A DNA stretch of 33,963 nt, taken from Nitrososphaerota archaeon (lineage in GTDB: Archaea; Thermoproteota; Nitrososphaeria; Nitrososphaerales; Nitrosopumilaceae). The notes under the pieces were generated by a model. That model did no database searches and was not told the origin of the DNA. It saw nothing but the letters and a program-made list of their open reading frames with translations. This document shows positions 1-6,256 of this stretch, piece by piece. The stretch covers positions 1 to 33,963 of the forward strand of contig DAHUYT010000008.1 of NCBI GenBank assembly GCA_027315065.1, read 5' to 3'. Each line of letters begins with the position of its first letter. Position 1 is the first letter of the stretch. Position numbers and translations under genes: made by a program.

Positions 1-226
1 CAGAGATTGAATCGCCGACGTCCCTTCTACTCTGATTATCGGAAAGCCCGTCTCTGCGGCGAAGAAAATATAGGATTGCCACGGTTAAAGTGGAGACGTA
101 TCCTGCAACCTTCTTTTGTCTTACAGAATTTACAAGTTTTAAACTGGGCTCCCAGTTTTTTCGTATCTGCAGAACGTCAAGAAAAACATTTGCGTCAACG
201 AATGCCTTTGGCTTGTCACTTGCCAT
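1..226 (-). CDS. PIN-domain protein, VapC-like (3' end outside window)
   Basis: The minus strand is open from an ATG at 226 to the window edge, giving the first 75 residues. The N-terminus FVDANVFLDVL (residues 9-19) is the first strand and acidic motif of PIN-domain nucleases, with Asp11 at the expected metal-binding position. A second conserved block, VSTLTVAILYFLRRR (44-58), matches the usual ST-T-x-x-E-x-Y-Y-x-x-R region, but the acidic residue normally near position 50-51 is Ala-Ile here. PIN proteins of this type are usually VapC toxins that cut RNA. The start overlaps the end of the upstream gene by 11 nt, so the two are probably translationally coupled, as in vapBC pairs. The family call is fairly safe; activity is uncertain because of the odd second motif and because the last two acidic motifs lie outside the window. 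Confidence 0.7.
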   Translation of the reverse strand, partial: MASDKPKAFVDANVFLDVLQIRKNWEPSLKLVNSVRQKKVAGYVSTLTVAILYFLRRRDGLSDNQSRRDVGDSIS

Positions 227-488
227 AGATCTCAGATACTGCGTGGCGTATTATCTGCTTGTCTTTTGATGGATGATTATATGACATTGTACCAACCAAT
301 CGCAGCAGACTCTTGTCCACATTTAGGCCCGGATATTTCCTTCTTAGCTGTTCTTCCAGCTTCTTTATGCGGTATCTTTCTGGTTTTTCCTTTCTTTCCA
401 TGTAATTTATCTTGTTGTAGAGATCTCTTAGATGATCCATCTCTTTTTCTATCTCCTTTTTGATATGCTGAAGCTCTTCTTTTGCCAT
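216..488 (-). CDS. Small helical protein, possible VapB-like antitoxin
   Basis: This 90-residue protein has a charged, predicted coiled-coil N-terminal half (about residues 3-50, rich in Glu and Lys) and a C-terminal segment beginning LLRLVGTMSYN and ending in EIYGK. Its stop codon lies inside the first codons of the PIN-domain gene (11-nt overlap), the order and overlap typical of an antitoxin followed by its toxin. I do not recognise a known DNA-binding fold, so the antitoxin role is inference from context. It lies in the integrated-element region with the integrase and the Spo11-like gene on the same strand. It could instead be a cargo protein unrelated to toxin neutralisation. Confidence 0.55.
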   Translation of the reverse strand: MAKEELQHIKKEIEKEMDHLRDLYNKINYMERKEKPERYRIKKLEEQLRRKYPGLNVDKSLLRLVGTMSYNHPSKDKQIIRHAVSEIYGK

Positions 489-592
489 GTCTAACAGTTA
501 GGTATTCACATCTCGGGATTTTAAAGATATCAGATTTCCTTTCTACTCAGTTATGACTTGTTATACCTGGACCGTCCTCTGATCTCTCTTGT

Positions 593-1516
593 TCACTTTT
601 TTGCATTCATCGAAGAACCGTCAGAAAGTAATGAGCCAAGCTTCTTTATCAGCGATGTAACCTCCTTACTTTTGAACCTTTTTTGAAGAGATTGTTTCTC
701 TTTTTCTATCTCCTTGAAGGTCTTGTTCCATCTGGATACATCGACATGTACTTTTATGGCATCCCTGATGATATTCTGCAGTTCGTTTGGAGGAAGTGCG
801 TCAAGCTCCCAACACTGGTTGCCATACTGTACAGAATATTCCCTCCACCTGCTGTCGCTCATCTTGGTCGGCATAGGTTCCAGGCCAAACTGCCTCACCT
901 GTGTGTATGTCAACGCTATGCGCTTGACTTTTGCATGCGAGCCATAGCGATACAACCGTGATTGAATATCCTCTGTCATGTTCAGTCCGCTGGGGTCATG
1001 GTCAGAAAAGTGCAGTATCGTTATTGGCCTGTCTCCATACAAAGAGAACCTTTTGTTGATTGCCTCGTATACCTTGGTATAAGAAGAGTAGCCCCTGCTT
1101 GGATATGTTACCACCCTGTATCCGTCGGCAATGCTTGAAAACAGGGTTGCAAGCGCGTCCTTTTCGACCCATACCTCCACGTACTGCGGCTGGTTATCCC
1201 ATATCCTTCTTGTATATTGTTCTGTATCTTCAAGCTCTGAGATCTTGGTCCTGACAAAATCTTGTACCGATGCATAACCGTAATCGCCGCCCATTACCTG
1301 TCTTGCGCGATCCACTATGCTTCTTGCGTCAATGTCTCCCTTCTCCCTGCCTCTTGTTATCATCCTGTCAAAGAGCTTGTAGCTGTTTATGGTATTCTGG
1401 ATAAATCCACTTGATACAAGTCGGTAAAAGATCTGCCTTACGGTAAGAAGCATATTGTATTGTGACATGATATTGTTTGTTGCCCTGACATATTCCCTAT
1501 ACTGCAACGGTATCAT
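593..1516 (-). CDS. Spo11/TopoVI-A-like protein with toprim domain
   Basis: The 307-residue protein has the two hallmarks of the Spo11/topoisomerase VI A family. Near the N-terminus LTVRQIFYRLV (about 24-34) matches the region holding the catalytic tyrosine, here Tyr31. The middle has a toprim-like core: VEVWVEKDAL with Glu118, and ILHFSDHDPSGLNM with Asp172 and Asp174, the D-x-D metal site. The C-terminus is charged and helical (about 255-300). It is shorter than cellular TopoVI-A (about 360-390 residues), and no TopVI-B ATPase gene lies beside it here. Context is an integrated element with integrase and a PIN-type pair. Likely roles are DNA cleavage or nicking during element replication or transfer, or defence by nucleic-acid cutting; these are inference. 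The starting ATG at 1516 sits 5 nt after a perfect 12-bp palindrome that may be its operator. Confidence 0.65.
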   Translation of the reverse strand: MIPLQYREYVRATNNIMSQYNMLLTVRQIFYRLVSSGFIQNTINSYKLFDRMITRGREKGDIDARSIVDRARQVMGGDYGYASVQDFVRTKISELEDTEQYTRRIWDNQPQYVEVWVEKDALATLFSSIADGYRVVTYPSRGYSSYTKVYEAINKRFSLYGDRPITILHFSDHDPSGLNMTEDIQSRLYRYGSHAKVKRIALTYTQVRQFGLEPMPTKMSDSRWREYSVQYGNQCWELDALPPNELQNIIRDAIKVHVDVSRWNKTFKEIEKEKQSLQKRFKSKEVTSLIKKLGSLLSDGSSMNAKK

Positions 1517-1521
1517 TATTG

Positions 1522-1533
1522 GTGACTAGTCAC
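1522..1533. promoter_or_regulatory. Perfect 12-bp palindrome, candidate operator
   Basis: GTGACTAGTCAC reads the same on both strands and ends 5 nt before the start codon of the toprim gene at 1516. A dimeric repressor bound there would block a leaderless or short-leader transcript. The palindrome is seen directly; its regulatory role is inference. Confidence 0.4.
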
Positions 1534-1658
1534 ACAAATCTTTCCGTTTACTGCAAGCTTCGCCGTGGGTAGTATGGCTTGAAACATGACCTTATACGCA
1601 TTTTCTGAGCTTGTACGCTTTTGGGTGAATGGTTTACAGATCGCAAGAAAAACCTACC

Positions 1659-1666
1659 TTTTAAGG
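1659..1666 (+). promoter_or_regulatory. TATA box for the gene at 1686
   Basis: TTTTAAGG is centred about 23 nt before the ATG at 1686, close to the spacing expected for a leaderless archaeal transcript. Confidence 0.4.
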
Positions 1667-1685
1667 AACAAAATAATCAGACTGT

Positions 1686-2045
1686 ATGAAAGACAATCCT
1701 GATAGTAGATTTCTCAAAGAAGAGCTTGCCAGATTGACACAAAGTGGTAGTGGAGACGTACTTGATGTTGTGTGGGTTCCAAGAATTGATTCTTCAAAGG
1801 AAGGCGAGGTAGTTGGCAAGACGATCTTTGTCTACTCGCAAGATCCAAGCCAAGCTATCGAGACACTCAGACACGAGTTTGTGGATTATCTTGTCTGCAA
1901 GGCAGTGGAACCATATCATGATATGGTAAATGCACTGCTTTCTGTACTATCAGAAAGAGCCTACAGAAAAAAGGAGGAGATTGTGGAATCTATTTTGAAG
2001 GTGCTAGAGTGCCCTCTTTCGCACAATGACCTTGCCGTTCTGTAA
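1686..2045 (+). CDS. Unknown protein with HEFxDY metallopeptidase-like motif
   Basis: I do not recognise this 119-residue protein. Its clearest feature is LRHEFVDYLVCKAVEPYHDM (61-80): His63-Glu64 followed by Asp67-Tyr68, resembling the HExxH/HExxD helix of small zinc metallopeptidase-like proteins such as the ImmA/IrrE type, with a further His at 78. The N-terminal third has a strand pattern (VLDVVWVPRI) consistent with a small alpha/beta domain. It runs opposite to the integrase and overlaps its 3' end by 42 nt. It has its own TATA-like box. In mobile elements such proteins often cleave a repressor, but that is inference; it could equally be a catalytically dead relative. Confidence 0.5.
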   Translation: MKDNPDSRFLKEELARLTQSGSGDVLDVVWVPRIDSSKEGEVVGKTIFVYSQDPSQAIETLRHEFVDYLVCKAVEPYHDMVNALLSVLSERAYRKKEEIVESILKVLECPLSHNDLAVL

Positions 2046-3314
2046 CTCTTTTACGATATCCCATCCTTCCTCTACATATCGTACCAGCTCATCTTCTGAC
2101 ACAAGCTTGCCCTCGTATCTTTCCTCCCTTGATTTTACAATTGCGTCCTTTATTGCAAGTATCTCATCGTCAAAACCAAGTGTCTTGCTTTCTCTTTGCT
2201 TTTCTATCTTGATTTTCAACGGATTTATTCCATAGAGTTTTGCCTGTTCGCGCCACATCTCAAGCAGGAGCTCTTTCTTGTCCTTCTCTTGGATCTCTTC
2301 TGTTGACAAAAACTGCTCGCTTTGCTGGAATGTTCTCCTCATGTCTTCAATCATCTCGTCGGAGAGCCTTCCCTTGTTTGTCGTATACCTTGATTCCATA
2401 TCGCCCTTGTGTCCCATAAAGAACTGCCTGTATGCGTGCGCAATCCTTCCGTGACTTTCTGCCAAGAGAAGCTGTGTGTCAAAATATGCCCGAAGGACAT
2501 ATGGCCTTGCCTTTATTACGGCTTTTACTGAATCCCTTATCTCTGATGTGACATTTTTTGTTGTAATAAATTTCGTATCAGATATCTTGTTTCTTCTCAA
2601 CTCGTATCCCTTTTCAAGTGCGATGACTGGAGAACTCGGATCAAGCTTCTCGGCATCTCCAAGCCTCATCTTCAGGTAACCCAAAAGATAGCTGCAGCCC
2701 TGACGAGGAAGAAATGTAAAGTACTTGTGTTTCGCCTTTGAAAGGTTCGGCCTAACTGTTACGATTGCTGGAATCTTGGAAAGGGATACATGTCCATCTT
2801 TTATTTCGAGCCCTTCAATGTCAGACAGGCAAAGGCCGTTGGTTCCCTCATGGTTTCCCAGAACCTGTGGTCTAAGACCTGCAAATGCCATGAGACTGAT
2901 GCTTGTTCTTCCACGTGGACCTGACACATCAAGCATTGCTGCAAGCTCTTCTTTTGTTGGAATCCTCTCGTCTTGTATACTCACTGGAATGCCGGCATTT
3001 GTTATCTTTATCTTTCTTTTTGGCTGGACATAGTTGAATGCAAGCCAGGACCTTATAGCTTTGAGTATGTTGTCAATGTATCCCGGTGCATAATTTTGTG
3101 ATTCAAGCCACGAGACATGATCAAGCAAGATGTTTTCAAGTTCCATGATATTTTTTTGCCCTATGATTACAAGCTCAGCTGCTGTCTTGCCAGTCCTCTC
3201 GCAGAAGAGCTTTAATCTTCGCAGCCTCACCGATGCTGTAAGCTTGCTTCCCCTTGCCATGTTTTCATGCCAGCGTCTTATGTTTTCATCGTTGAGGAGG
3301 CTTGTGGATCTCAT
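2004..3314 (-). CDS. Tyrosine recombinase (integrase) of an integrated element
   Basis: The likely start is the ATG at 3314, giving 436 residues. The frame stays open further upstream, but that stretch is the tRNA-Val gene read as protein, so it is not used. From this start the catalytic set is visible: Arg148 in FAGLRPQVLG, candidate lysines in LSKAKHKY (192-198), YVLR (272-275), His302 in MGHKGD and nucleophile Tyr310 in ESRYTTNKG. An N-terminal SAM-like DNA-binding domain (about 10-105) precedes the catalytic domain, and a helical tail (about 340-436) follows. The gene begins 70 nt after the tRNA 3' end and points away, the usual layout for an element integrated in a tRNA gene, with the rest of the element to the left. 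A degraded relative of its C-terminus occurs at about 11437-11763. Confidence 0.9.
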   Translation of the reverse strand: MRSTSLLNDENIRRWHENMARGSKLTASVRLRRLKLFCERTGKTAAELVIIGQKNIMELENILLDHVSWLESQNYAPGYIDNILKAIRSWLAFNYVQPKRKIKITNAGIPVSIQDERIPTKEELAAMLDVSGPRGRTSISLMAFAGLRPQVLGNHEGTNGLCLSDIEGLEIKDGHVSLSKIPAIVTVRPNLSKAKHKYFTFLPRQGCSYLLGYLKMRLGDAEKLDPSSPVIALEKGYELRRNKISDTKFITTKNVTSEIRDSVKAVIKARPYVLRAYFDTQLLLAESHGRIAHAYRQFFMGHKGDMESRYTTNKGRLSDEMIEDMRRTFQQSEQFLSTEEIQEKDKKELLLEMWREQAKLYGINPLKIKIEKQRESKTLGFDDEILAIKDAIVKSREERYEGKLVSEDELVRYVEEGWDIVKELQNGKVIVRKRAL

Positions 3315-3384
3315 CTGTTCTCGCAAGCAAAGATCTGGATTGCTTTTAAGGGGTTTAGAACGCGGTTCCGGATACTCCAGTAAA

Positions 3385-3458
3385 TGGGTCCACAGGGATT
3401 CGAACCCTGGATCTTCGCCGTGTAAGGGCGACGTCATAACCAACTGGACTATGAACCC
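3385..3458 (-). tRNA. tRNA-Val (anticodon TAC)
   Basis: On the minus strand GGGTTCA at the 5' end pairs with TGGACCC at the 3' end, followed by discriminator A. The anticodon loop CTTACAC carries TAC, and the T-arm contains GGGTTCGAATCCC. No intron is needed and CCA is not encoded. The 3' half is the probable attachment site for the adjacent integrase. A second copy of the 3' end is not present in the 3 kb to the left. Confidence 0.95.
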
Positions 3459-3481
3459 AAGCAAGCTCCAATTTAAAATGC

Positions 3482-3544: not shown

Positions 3545-4558
3545 ATGACAGATTTGGTTTTCTTTACAAGTCCTATAGGATTGGGGCATGCCACAAGGAC
3601 TGTGGCAATTTCACAGTATTTGGACAATACTCAAAAAAAATTCATAAGCGGTATAGGCGCATACAAATTACTTTCTGAATATGGATTTGACACCATAGAT
3701 CTATACAGACCGCCACCCTTTAGAATTGAAAATGGCAAACTTCACAGTCAACTTAGGTGGCTTTTTGATTATCTTGTATACTACAAAGAGTGCAAGAAAA
3801 TATCTACAAAGATAATAGAAAAGGAGATGCCTAGACTTGTAGCAAGCGATGAAGACTTTGCATCACTTGTGATAGCACAGAAACAGAAGACGAAGACAGT
3901 TCTAATCACTGATATTTTGGAGACAAAATTCACAAAAGGGATTGGTGCCATTATGGAAAAAAAGATGAATCAGGTCATGAAGGGTATTATAGAAAAATGT
4001 GATCTTGTGATAGTCCCAGAGAATGGCCAAAACTATAATAACATAGTAAGAGTTGGACCAATAGTTAGGAATACCACCGAGTCCCGTGAGCAACTAAGAA
4101 AAAAATATTCTTTTAACAGAAAAACAATTGTTGTAAGCATAGGTGGAACAGATCTTGGAAAGTTTTTAATTGAAAAGACTGTAGAGGCGTTCGAAAAGAG
4201 CAACTATGATGCAGAACTTGTAATAGTTTCTGGGCCCACTCTTCAAATGAAACAATTGACGCACCGAAATCTTGGATTTGTCAGCAATCTACATGAAATA
4301 ATATATGCTGCAGACTTGATAATATCGCTAGCAGGAAAATCCACCATCGATGAATCAAAGCATTATGGTACACCCGGAATATTTATCCCGATAAAGGGAC
4401 ATTTTGAACAGGAAGAAAATGCAAGAGAGATAGGATATTCTTACGAGGATATTTTCAGATTAGAAGCGCTGATTCTAGAAAAAATGAATGAAAAAAGAAA
4501 CCCTCAATATTTTCAGGGTAGTAAAACTGCTGCAGAATTGATAAGAAAATTTTTTTAA
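3545..4558 (+). CDS. GT28/MurG-like glycosyltransferase
   Basis: The 337-residue protein is a GT-B fold glycosyltransferase of the family-28 (MurG-like) type. The N-terminus VFFTSPIGLGHATRT (5-19) is the glycine-rich loop that opens this family. The second domain begins at IVVSIGGTDLG (about 199-209), and the nucleotide-sugar binding region follows: the ISLAGKSTIDESKHYGTPGI region, then PIKGHFEQEENA, where a His and Glu-Gln match the donor-binding signature. The substrate is not readable; archaeal relatives transfer sugars to lipid or cell-surface acceptors, or act in N-glycan or glycolipid synthesis. The N-terminal domain is rich in Lys and Ile. It stands alone, between tRNA-Val and the aspartate kinase, and marks the return to chromosomal sequence after the integrated element. 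Confidence 0.75.
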   Translation: MTDLVFFTSPIGLGHATRTVAISQYLDNTQKKFISGIGAYKLLSEYGFDTIDLYRPPPFRIENGKLHSQLRWLFDYLVYYKECKKISTKIIEKEMPRLVASDEDFASLVIAQKQKTKTVLITDILETKFTKGIGAIMEKKMNQVMKGIIEKCDLVIVPENGQNYNNIVRVGPIVRNTTESREQLRKKYSFNRKTIVVSIGGTDLGKFLIEKTVEAFEKSNYDAELVIVSGPTLQMKQLTHRNLGFVSNLHEIIYAADLIISLAGKSTIDESKHYGTPGIFIPIKGHFEQEENAREIGYSYEDIFRLEALILEKMNEKRNPQYFQGSKTAAELIRKFF

Positions 4559-4704
4559 TTATTTTTTTGGAAGTCAATACATCCAGTTATTTCTCTGCAA
4601 AATTCCTCATTATGAACTAGCCCCATTTCAGGCAGATACTGAAGTATGTGGTTTGTGTTCTTGTCTTTGAATAGCTCTCCTTGTTCAATGCTCACAACAA
4701 ACAC
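4555..4704 (-). CDS. Possible small unknown protein, GTG start
   Basis: A 50-codon frame opens at GTG 4704 and ends 4 nt inside the end of the glycosyltransferase gene. The composition is protein-like and balanced, with VFVVSIEQGEL at the start, a helix-like EMGLVHNEEFCREI in the middle and two Cys near the end. The frame is open upstream to a TAA about 33 nt earlier without an ATG. No Shine-Dalgarno sequence is visible. Either a small real gene or the residue of one; I do not recognise a family. Confidence 0.35.
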   Translation of the reverse strand: MFVVSIEQGELFKDKNTNHILQYLPEMGLVHNEEFCREITGCIDFQKNN

Positions 4705-4840
4705 CCAATCATGTAAACAATTACCTATTTTTTCCTTTTAAGGTATGCGTACGAATTATTCCTGGTTATAATTAGATCGTCTCATGTATAATGTCGTTCA
4801 CCCAAACTTTATAGAAGGTTCAGATACATGTAATCAAGTT

Positions 4841-6256
4841 TTGCAAAATCTAGTTGTAGCAAAGTTTGGAGGAAGTGCAGTAGGAATTGACGGTGCACTA
4901 ATACCTATAATAATCAATAGAATCAATGAGTTAAAAAAAGACTCCAAAGTGATTGCAGTTTTTTCTGCTCCCCTTACAGCCTATAATGGCAGGCAGAGAT
5001 CATTGACAGATATTACTCTCGAGATTGGTAGAAAGGCAGAGAATGGTCAAGGTGTAGATGTGGAAGAGCTGCGTGAGCCATATCTTAAGATTCTCTCCTT
5101 GGTAGATAGGAACCTCCAAGATGAATGCAAAAAAATAATTGAATCATTTTTAGAGAAAGCGTCTAGATCACTCGAAGAGGCACTGCAAAAAAAGGAATTT
5201 GCAAATGAGATCAGGGCAAGAGTTCTTGCATACTCTGGTGAGATACTAATGTCTAACATTATGAGTTATGTTCTGAAAAGTGCTGGTATAAAATCAGATG
5301 TTGTAAGTTTTGACATGTGGCCCATTGTGACTGATGAGAATATAGAATCAGCCAATTTTCTCGCTACTCAATCATCTGAAAATCTAGAGGGAGTAGAATC
5401 TCTGCTTGAGCGAAATGATGTAATATCCATTGGAGGATTTATTGGAAAGACAACTAGTGGATTGGAAACTACATACGAACGGGGTGGTTCTGATAGGACT
5501 GCCGCCGATCTTGGAATTTTGTTTAGCAAGAAATACAATACCAAGATTGATTTTGAAAAAGATAGCGCCGTATTATCTGCAGATCCACGGATTGTAAAAG
5601 AAGAGCTGGAATACATAACTCATCTCTCATACAACGAGGCACGCATTGCAGGCATGTTTGGAATGAAGATTCTTGATCCTATTGCAATAAAGGAGATAGT
5701 AGAAAATGGGGTAGACATACCAATCATAATAACTGACATGGGTAATCCTAGCAAGATTACGACAATACAAAGAAACCCAGATGATAAAAATGGTCATCCT
5801 CTAAAGATAGTCACAGGAAAGAGAAATTGTGCCATACTTAGAATAGAAAGTGAATCATCCCAGAATCTTTTTAATTCACTCAAAAAAGACAAAAGATACA
5901 GCGAATTTGTGGTATTATCCCCATTTACAAAAGATGACATAGAATTTACCAGAATTCTCTTCCTAGATGGAGACTATGTAAAGCGCAATGAAAGATATAT
6001 CTTGGCTTTTGATCCGTTGGCTTCAATCACCTACAACAGGGGAGTAATAACATTGATTGGCGATGAGATGTGGCGTGTGCAACAAATTGCGTCAAAGGCA
6101 AGCTCAAGGATTGGCGAAGCTGGTCTTAACATTCTAAACATGGACGCCCAAGAAGAGACATCACGTATAATCGTAGTTATAGAAGATAGTGGTGACAACA
6201 TAGAGCGGGCAATCTGTGCTGTTCATGCAGAAAGATCAAAAATAAAATTTTTGTGA
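4841..6256 (+). CDS. lysC: Aspartate kinase
   Basis: Phosphorylates aspartate, the first step towards lysine, threonine and methionine. The N-terminal motif VVAKFGGSAVG is the kinase K-F-G-G signature. The later YERGGSDRTAADLG is the aspartate-binding region (normally GRGGSD), and MKILDPIAIK is also typical. Two ACT regulatory domains fill the C-terminus (roughly the last 140 residues, including LNILNMDAQEETSRIIVVIE), so feedback inhibition by an end product is likely. An ATG at 4784 in the same frame would add 19 residues. I prefer TTG 4841 because family members begin just before the kinase motif and a TATA-like CTTTATAG lies about 30 nt upstream. The length from 4841 (471 residues) fits the family. 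It is not linked here to other lysine or threonine genes. Confidence 0.9.
   Translation: MQNLVVAKFGGSAVGIDGALIPIIINRINELKKDSKVIAVFSAPLTAYNGRQRSLTDITLEIGRKAENGQGVDVEELREPYLKILSLVDRNLQDECKKIIESFLEKASRSLEEALQKKEFANEIRARVLAYSGEILMSNIMSYVLKSAGIKSDVVSFDMWPIVTDENIESANFLATQSSENLEGVESLLERNDVISIGGFIGKTTSGLETTYERGGSDRTAADLGILFSKKYNTKIDFEKDSAVLSADPRIVKEELEYITHLSYNEARIAGMFGMKILDPIAIKEIVENGVDIPIIITDMGNPSKITTIQRNPDDKNGHPLKIVTGKRNCAILRIESESSQNLFNSLKKDKRYSEFVVLSPFTKDDIEFTRILFLDGDYVKRNERYILAFDPLASITYNRGVITLIGDEMWRVQQIASKASSRIGEAGLNILNMDAQEETSRIIVVIEDSGDNIERAICAVHAERSKIKFL

What the first reader, a model, noticed from the sequence alone, without database searches (positions are those of the whole stretch)
1..3458. 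Small integrated element at tRNA-Val with Spo11-like, PIN and HEFxDY genes
An intact tyrosine integrase abuts the 3' end of tRNA-Val and points away from it. Behind it are a Spo11/TopoVI-A-like toprim protein, an overlapping small protein/PIN pair and a protein with an HEFxDY motif. The combination looks like cargo or maintenance genes of a plasmid- or virus-like element. The region also appears richer in G+C than 3545-6256. This is the most likely place for an undescribed system in the window.
Basis: partly seen in the sequence, partly recalled or inferred. Interest (0 to 1): 0.62.

Follow-up and report, generated by a model that had tools for sequence, protein, structure and literature searches.

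The report
Archaeal integrative element at a tRNA
The first 3.4 kb of this window is one end of a mobile DNA element that inserts itself into tRNA genes of ammonia-oxidiser-type archaea; it belongs to a newly recognised small family that carries a DNA-cutting topoisomerase relative, maintenance genes and an unknown partner protein of its integration enzyme.

Summary
Window 1-3397 is the tRNA-proximal end of an integrative element, cut by the contig start at window base 1. It carries an intact tyrosine integrase, a Spo11/TopoVI-A-like protein (the known 'Topo Mini-A' family), a small-protein/PIN pair and a HEFxDY protein.

Mini-A occurs in only 4 of 37 same-genus genomes, in up to four copies (nine in all). 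In all nine an integrase gene lies directly upstream, from three unrelated families. Three complete sister copies (11.3-15.4 kb) lie at tRNA 3' ends between short direct repeats. For two of them, element-free genomes show the tRNA next to the host DNA that follows the far repeat.

The sister copies share a core: Int, Mini-A, a slot with toxin-like genes, an AbrB-like protein, an actin-like protein and a small AbrB protein. Target tRNAs appear to change by replacing att plus the 5' part of int.

The HEFxDY protein is a new family. In 8 genomes of the phylum it is encoded tail-to-tail with an integrase. Its weak structure model matches minimal metallopeptidases, but HExxH is lost. I infer that it controls the integrase.

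The window copy's far att site is not assembled. The element is a new family of a known kind (thaumarchaeal cryptic integrated elements).

The parts
1..3397 (.). tRNA-proximal end of an integrative element; truncated at window base 1, which is the start of contig C85
3385..3458 (-). tRNA-Val(TAC) gene, integration target
   Evidence: Rfam RF00005, 66.8 bits; syntenic with the glycosyltransferase at 3545 in 14 of 15 same-genus loci scanned
3385..3397 (.). inferred attachment site (tRNA 3' end, TGGGTCCACAGGG); length inferred from the 11-13 bp repeats of sister elements; distal copy not assembled
   Evidence: relatives diverge just 3' of the tRNA
2004..3314 (-). tyrosine integrase (436 aa), intact, ATG at 3314; C-terminal part about 95% identical to the integrase of a sister element at another tRNA, N-terminal part 55-60%
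1686..2045 (+). HEFxDY protein (119 aa), tail-to-tail and overlapping the integrase 3' end by 42 nt; family found beside integrases in other archaea; predicted alpha-beta-beta-beta-alpha core resembling minigluzincins, HExxH not conserved
593..1516 (-). Topo Mini-A (Spo11/TopoVI-A-like, 307 aa): candidate catalytic Tyr31 (RQxFY), toprim Glu118 and DxD 172/174 all present
216..488 (-). small coiled-coil-like protein (90 aa), possible antitoxin of the PIN protein; 81-94% identical pair in two sister copies
2..226 (-). PIN-domain protein, 3' part missing at the contig start

Best explanation
It is the integrase end of a chromosomally integrated mobile element of an archaeon of the order Nitrososphaerales. 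Shown for sister copies: the element sits between the 3' end of a tRNA gene and its downstream neighbour, with a short repeat of the tRNA end on the far side, so the tRNA stays whole and int stays intact. Inferred: the integrase can excise the circle again. Shown: the core behind int is conserved (Mini-A under strong purifying selection, then a slot that holds PIN+small protein, PemK/MazF or GNAT genes, then an AbrB-like protein, an actin-like protein and a small AbrB-like protein), whereas the far arm with secreted proteins and TATA-binding proteins varies. Inferred: Mini-A serves the DNA topology, replication or resolution of the excised circle; the slot and the actin-like/AbrB genes keep the element in its host (addiction and partition). 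Shown: in two pairs of copies the att-proximal part of int and the target tRNA differ while the rest of int and Mini-A match; inferred: homologous exchange between resident copies re-targets the element. The HEFxDY protein, encoded tail-to-tail with its integrase type across the phylum, most likely controls integration or excision, as a degenerate minigluzincin rather than an active protease.
For: Patchy, multicopy distribution of Mini-A. Integrase directly upstream in 9 of 9 same-genus copies, from three families. att repeats at tRNA 3' ends of three copies: 13 bp/13.9 kb, 11 bp/15.4 kb, 12 bp/11.3 kb. Empty sites: tRNA-Leu(GAG) sits beside the host DNA beyond the far repeat in 9 of 9 other genomes, tRNA-Ser(GCT) in 7 of 9. 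tRNA-Val locus empty in G013/G015 and occupied by different integrases in others. Mini-A omega 0.05-0.13; fold matched only by Topo VI A chains with E<=0.001. Mosaic int: dS saturated in residues 1-120 against 0.26 in 361-420. Actin-like protein: PF06723 at 7.9e-11 and MreB chains in the PDB. HEFxDY/integrase tail-to-tail pairs in 8 genomes.
Against: The far att site of this copy is not in the assembly, and neither the AbrB-like nor the actin-like gene was found in the window's own genome, so its core is inferred from sisters. No replication initiator was recognised in the complete copies. G000 contig C86, which should border the other side, carries pst and ars genes with no att repeat. Mobility, excision, toxin activity and HEFxDY function are untested. 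The HEFxDY model is weak (mean pLDDT 61.6; best Foldseek E 0.037).
Confidence: 0.82

Rival explanations
1. It is a provirus: Mini-A is mostly a virus gene and the large secreted proteins of the far arm could be structural proteins of an unknown archaeal virus.
For: The distant relative in G060 lies among PriX-like primase and DNA polymerase genes.
Against: Listing the genes of the three complete sister elements showed no recognisable capsid, terminase or portal gene (not every ORF was scanned against a library); they carry an actin-like gene, AbrB-like genes and toxin-like genes, which fits plasmid-type maintenance.
Confidence: 0.1
2. It is a degenerate genomic island: the integrase once brought it in, but it is now fixed.
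For: The far att site of this copy is not found, and the neighbouring contig carries pst/ars cargo and a truncated host gene. G014 keeps only the att arm at the same tRNA. One sister copy has a transposase gene and a split actin-like gene.
Against: Int, HEF and Mini-A of the window are intact, and Mini-A is under strong purifying selection between copies. Copies differ in presence and target between close species.
Confidence: 0.15
3. The set is an anti-virus (abortive infection) cassette riding in an island: a toprim DNA-cutting protein with a PIN toxin.
For: Toprim nuclease-like and PIN proteins are common in defence (general knowledge); the slot beside Mini-A holds toxin-like genes (PIN, PemK, GNAT).
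Against: No PADLOC-DB model matches any of the proteins. Mini-A follows the integrase, not the PIN pair: other copies have PemK, GNAT or none in the slot.
Confidence: 0.06
4. The HEFxDY protein is a minigluzincin protease that clears covalent Mini-A/integrase-DNA intermediates (Wss1/SPRTN-like) or cuts a repressor (ImmA-like) to start excision.
For: Top Foldseek hits are M. jannaschii selecase/jannalysin, then PprI; a DPC-repair protease is further down. Wss1/Spartan are called minigluzincins (PMC4559962). One relative (G060), next to Mini-A, keeps HEFFH.
Against: The second His is Asp or Glu in nearly all members and the catalytic Glu is Gly in two. The family goes with integrases, not with Mini-A. 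Hits are weak (E 0.037 and up).
Confidence: 0.2

Closest known systems
Cryptic integrated elements (CIE) of Thaumarchaeota (Krupovic et al. 2019, PMC6563490)
   Same: Integrase-carrying, mostly under 20 kb, often inserted at tRNA 3' ends with short att sites (as short as 8 bp, most under 26 bp), no capsid or conjugation genes recognised
   Different: That paper's main text mentions no Spo11/Mini-A, actin/ParM/MreB, AbrB or PIN gene and states that CIE share no signature gene; here a Mini-A/actin-like/AbrB core defines a family
Topo Mini-A, type IIB topoisomerase A-like family (Takahashi et al. 2020 as cited in PMC8185306)
   Same: Sequence family, catalytic Tyr and toprim residues, carriage by mobile elements
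   Different: Here it is tied to an integrase in nine of nine same-genus copies; PMC8185306 states that no archaeal Mini-A had been characterised
Archaeal suicidal (SSV1/pTN3/pT26-2) integrases (PMC8371274)
   Same: Tyrosine recombinases that target tRNA genes, with specificity switches by recombination between integrated copies
   Different: Here the att site lies about 70 nt upstream of int, the gene stays intact, and the window integrase hits no relevant Pfam or NCBIfam model
Minigluzincins (jannalysin/selecase) and the M78 proteases PprI/ImmA
   Same: Predicted core alpha-beta-beta-beta-alpha with the HE motif in the second main helix
   Different: HExxH is HExxD in the window and degenerate in the family
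VapBC-type PIN toxin-antitoxin pairs
   Same: Small gene overlapping a PIN gene in one operon
   Different: The small protein has no recognised antitoxin DNA-binding domain

Membership tests
Tyrosine recombinase/integrase | R-K-[HxxR]-H-Y catalytic residues and Xer-like catalytic domain | tested here: met
   R, K, R, H and Y invariant in the alignment (HxxR reads YxxR in the window protein); profile match to Xer-type integrases 99.1-99.4%
Suicidal (SSV-type) integrase | attP inside int, gene split on integration | tested here: not met
   int intact, att about 70 nt upstream of its ATG
Thaumarchaeal cryptic integrated element | integrase gene beside the target | tested here: met
Thaumarchaeal cryptic integrated element | short direct repeat (att) of the target at both ends | tested here: inconclusive
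   not found for this copy because the contig ends; found for three sister copies
Thaumarchaeal cryptic integrated element | variable presence at the site among relatives | tested here: met
Thaumarchaeal cryptic integrated element | no virion or conjugation genes | tested here: inconclusive
   none noticed in the gene lists of three complete sisters; not every ORF was scanned; window copy incomplete
Topo Mini-A | TopoVI-A-like fold with catalytic Tyr and toprim E/DxD | tested here: met
   Tyr31, D172 and D174 invariant, E118 in at least 90% of 42 sequences; AF2 mean pLDDT 87.6, only Topo VI A chains at E<=0.001
Topo Mini-A | no cognate B (GHKL ATPase) subunit nearby | tested here: inconclusive
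   none recognised among the element genes that were scanned; not all ORFs scanned
Topo Mini-A | DNA cleavage or strand passage activity | not testable with these tools
   needs biochemistry
Minigluzincin metallopeptidase (HEFxDY protein) | HExxH zinc motif | tested here: not met
   HEFVD in the window; D/E at the second His position in nearly all members
Minigluzincin metallopeptidase (HEFxDY protein) | minimal zincin fold | tested here: inconclusive
   best Foldseek hits selecase/jannalysin, prob 0.82-0.95 but E 0.037-0.084, on a weak model
VapBC-type TA pair | PIN toxin with overlapping antitoxin gene | tested here: inconclusive
   PIN confirmed in a sister copy, overlap confirmed; antitoxin identity and toxicity untested
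Actin-like (ParM/Alp) partition system | actin-fold ATPase gene on the element | tested here: inconclusive
   present in sister copies; absent from the assembled part of this copy
Known anti-phage defence system | match to a PADLOC-DB model | tested here: not met
   no hits

The most novel reading that the evidence does not exclude
Mini-A acts as a Spo11-like break maker without a B subunit: its double-strand breaks drive homologous exchange between resident copies, which swaps the att site plus the 5' part of int and so moves the family to new tRNA targets, with the HEFxDY protein as a new type of archaeal integrase control factor.
Probability: 0.1. Interest if true: 0.85.

Novelty: new variant of a known kind. 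Interest (0 to 1): 0.5.

Why it matters
It gives a delimited family of integrative elements in ammonia-oxidiser-type archaea, whose mobile elements are mostly unclassified, with empty and filled sites in close relatives. It ties a Mini-A topoisomerase, uncharacterised in archaea, to integrases in a compact 5-6 kb core that can be tested in vitro. It also names a small protein family encoded tail-to-tail with archaeal tyrosine integrases, for which directionality factors are essentially unknown (PMC8371274: characterised archaeal integrases work without one).

Tried and rejected
The att repeat was sought in the whole assembly and in contig C86: nothing convincing; TGGGTCCAC inside pstS (L084:11800) lies in the conserved ETGSTLL codons and is taken as chance. 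The ORF read through the tRNA (TTG at 3464) was rejected as the integrase start in favour of the ATG at 3314. A conserved partner gene upstream of Mini-A across 152 loci: none common. HEFxDY as a plain zincin protease: rejected because the motif is not kept. HEFxDY relatives in phage and plasmid records: no match; one viral contig only. PDB sequence hits of the integrase profile to TAL effectors (33-37 residues) were ignored as chance. The first automatic label of one target tRNA (tRNA-His in G019) is probably tRNA-Lys(CTT) with an intron (reading). The integrase was not found in viral contigs.
Full report
What is there. Window base 1 is base 1 of contig C85 of a 1.74 Mb genome in 86 contigs. 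On the - strand, reading away from tRNA-Val(TAC) (3385-3458), come a tyrosine integrase (2004-3314), a 307-aa Spo11/TopoVI-A-like protein (593-1516), a 90-aa coiled-coil-like protein (216-488) and a PIN protein cut by the contig start (2-226); the HEFxDY gene lies on the + strand (1686-2045) and overlaps the 3' end of int by 42 nt. G+C is 0.425-0.446 in this stretch against 0.353-0.373 at 3.5-6 kb.

The Spo11-like protein is Topo Mini-A. It matches phrog_6247 'DNA topoisomerase' at 2.6e-70, and its homologues in an archaeal plasmid record are annotated Topo Mini-A. In 42 aligned homologues Arg27, Gln28 and Tyr31 (candidate catalytic Tyr) and Asp172/Asp174 are invariant and Glu118 is nearly so. 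The AF2 model (mean pLDDT 87.6) has only Topo VI A chains as PDB matches at E<=0.001. Reviews place Mini-A mainly in mobile elements and note that no archaeal one has been characterised (PMC8185306).

The element family. In 61 genomes Mini-A occurs in the window's genome, in three others of the same genus (one copy in G005, four each in G019 and G030 as counted by matches; one G019 gene is hit in two pieces) and, more distantly, in two of other families. Counting genes, the same-genus copies are: window, G005, three in G019 and four in G030, nine in all. They are 88-96% identical to the window's. All nine have an integrase gene directly upstream on the same strand, from three families (window type in G000 and one G019 copy; a zinc-ribbon type in two G030 copies, G005 and two short G019 contigs; an XerC-like type in two G030 copies). 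In the window the HEFxDY gene lies between int and Mini-A on the other strand. Behind Mini-A is a slot that holds the PIN pair (G000, G005, one G019 contig), a PemK-like toxin (PF02452, 5e-12) or a GNAT protein, then an AbrB-like ~317-aa protein (weak PF04014 hits), an actin-like protein (PF06723, 8e-11) and, on the other strand, a small AbrB-like protein.

Boundaries. Three G030 copies end in exact repeats of the tRNA 3' end: TAGGCGCCGGGAG (C33:56705/70621, 13.9 kb), TGCGGGAGAAG (C33:156728/172134, 15.4 kb) and CTCCCCGCGCTT (C87:81490/92813, 11.3 kb). Repeats this short are not significant alone (my estimate is about 0.1 to 1 chance hits each), but for the second and third the host DNA just beyond the far repeat lies, in other genomes of the genus, next to the same tRNA gene: tRNA-Leu(GAG) in 9 of 9 and tRNA-Ser(GCT) in 7 of 9 genomes, with host homology stopping 63 bp from the repeat in the second. 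So integration between tRNA and neighbour is shown for two copies. The first copy was not checked this way.

The window's own copy. In relatives tRNA-Val is syntenic with the glycosyltransferase gene at 3545. In G013 and G015 its other side abuts a radical-SAM gene (empty site); G002 has the window's integrase type there; G005 and G022 have other integrases; G014 keeps only the att-side arm. The radical-SAM gene of G000 is on contig C86. Synteny with the nearest relative G018 breaks at about C86:42574 inside a secreted-protein gene, after which C86 carries aquaporin, ArsC- and ArsM-like, PhoU and pst genes to its end (gene names by eye). No repeat of the tRNA-Val end is found elsewhere in the assembly, and the AbrB-like and actin-like genes are not in it. 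The gap between C86 and C85 therefore probably hides the rest of the core and the far att; whether pst/ars is cargo of this element is open.

Mosaic structure. Mini-A pairs show omega 0.05-0.13, i.e. a protein kept functional. Between the window and the G019 copy at another tRNA, identity is 62-68% over the first ~800 nt from the tRNA and 88-96% from ~1000 nt through int, HEF and Mini-A, apart from one 80% block in the intergenic stretch. Synonymous divergence is saturated in int residues 1-120, above 1 up to residue 360 and 0.26 in 361-420, which selection on the protein alone does not explain. The two G030 copies at different tRNA-Ser genes show a similar but noisier step. I infer exchange by homologous recombination that replaces att plus the 5' part of int and thereby the target.

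The HEFxDY family. It matches in 17 of 398 genomes of the phylum. In eight loci, the window's included, a tyrosine integrase lies tail-to-tail (seven of them between an overlap of 75 nt and a gap of 60 nt, one at 432 nt). Invariant columns include L10, L14, W30, P32, G40, H63, Y93 and E97. The model (mean pLDDT 61.6, best part 70-84) is alpha-beta-beta-beta-alpha, and the top PDB hits are selecase/jannalysin minigluzincins and PprI, at weak E-values. The HExxH motif is not kept. It is therefore most likely a degenerate zincin-like protein working with the integrase. This is inference; the review of archaeal integrases names no general directionality factor (PMC8371274).

How it compares. It fits the thaumarchaeal cryptic integrated elements (size, tRNA 3' end, short att; PMC6563490), but that paper's main text describes no Mini-A or actin-like core. 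Relatives' record titles read 'Thaumarchaeota archaeon isolate REEA14/REEA70/REEA19'; genus identity was not established.

Noticed in passing
G000 contig C86:42574-54009 (L084:6574-18009): Island with aquaporin-, ArsC-like and truncated ArsM-like genes, PhoU and a pst phosphate transporter operon, next to a truncated secreted-protein gene, at the other side of the tRNA-Val locus (gene names by eye).
   Followed up: partly
L030:10290-10375 (G019:C133): A tRNA-like gene with a long variable arm but anticodon GAA inside a sister element, 50 bp behind Mini-A (Rfam tRNA 43 bits): possibly an element-borne unusual tRNA.
   Followed up: partly
L035:12570-16259 (G060:C62): A distant Mini-A next to a HEFFHY protein, a PriX-like primase gene and a DNA polymerase gene: a virus- or plasmid-like replication block in another family of the order.
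   Followed up: partly
L025:6871-7431 and L026:1472-2029: Two sister elements encode their own TATA-binding protein (PF00352, 8e-55 and 3.5e-56).
   Followed up: partly
L026:3111-4241 and L026:6831-7690: One sister element carries an IS240-type transposase gene and a split actin-like gene.
   Followed up: partly
L259:1531-1719 (G003:C87): A HEFxDY remnant directly beside the radical-SAM gene that flanks tRNA-Val in relatives, followed by an ATPase-like gene: trace of another occupant of this hotspot.
   Followed up: no
G000:C12 (L033:12912-13931) and C41 (L034:4919-5218): Two further relatives (45-48%) of the window integrase in the same genome, near tRNA-Lys(TTT) and tRNA-Val(GAC); the second is a short match.
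   Followed up: partly
L027:11490-11560 (G030:C95): A sister element whose integrase side has no tRNA; only ATGCGG of the expected att is kept, so it sits at a secondary site or a rearranged end.
   Followed up: no
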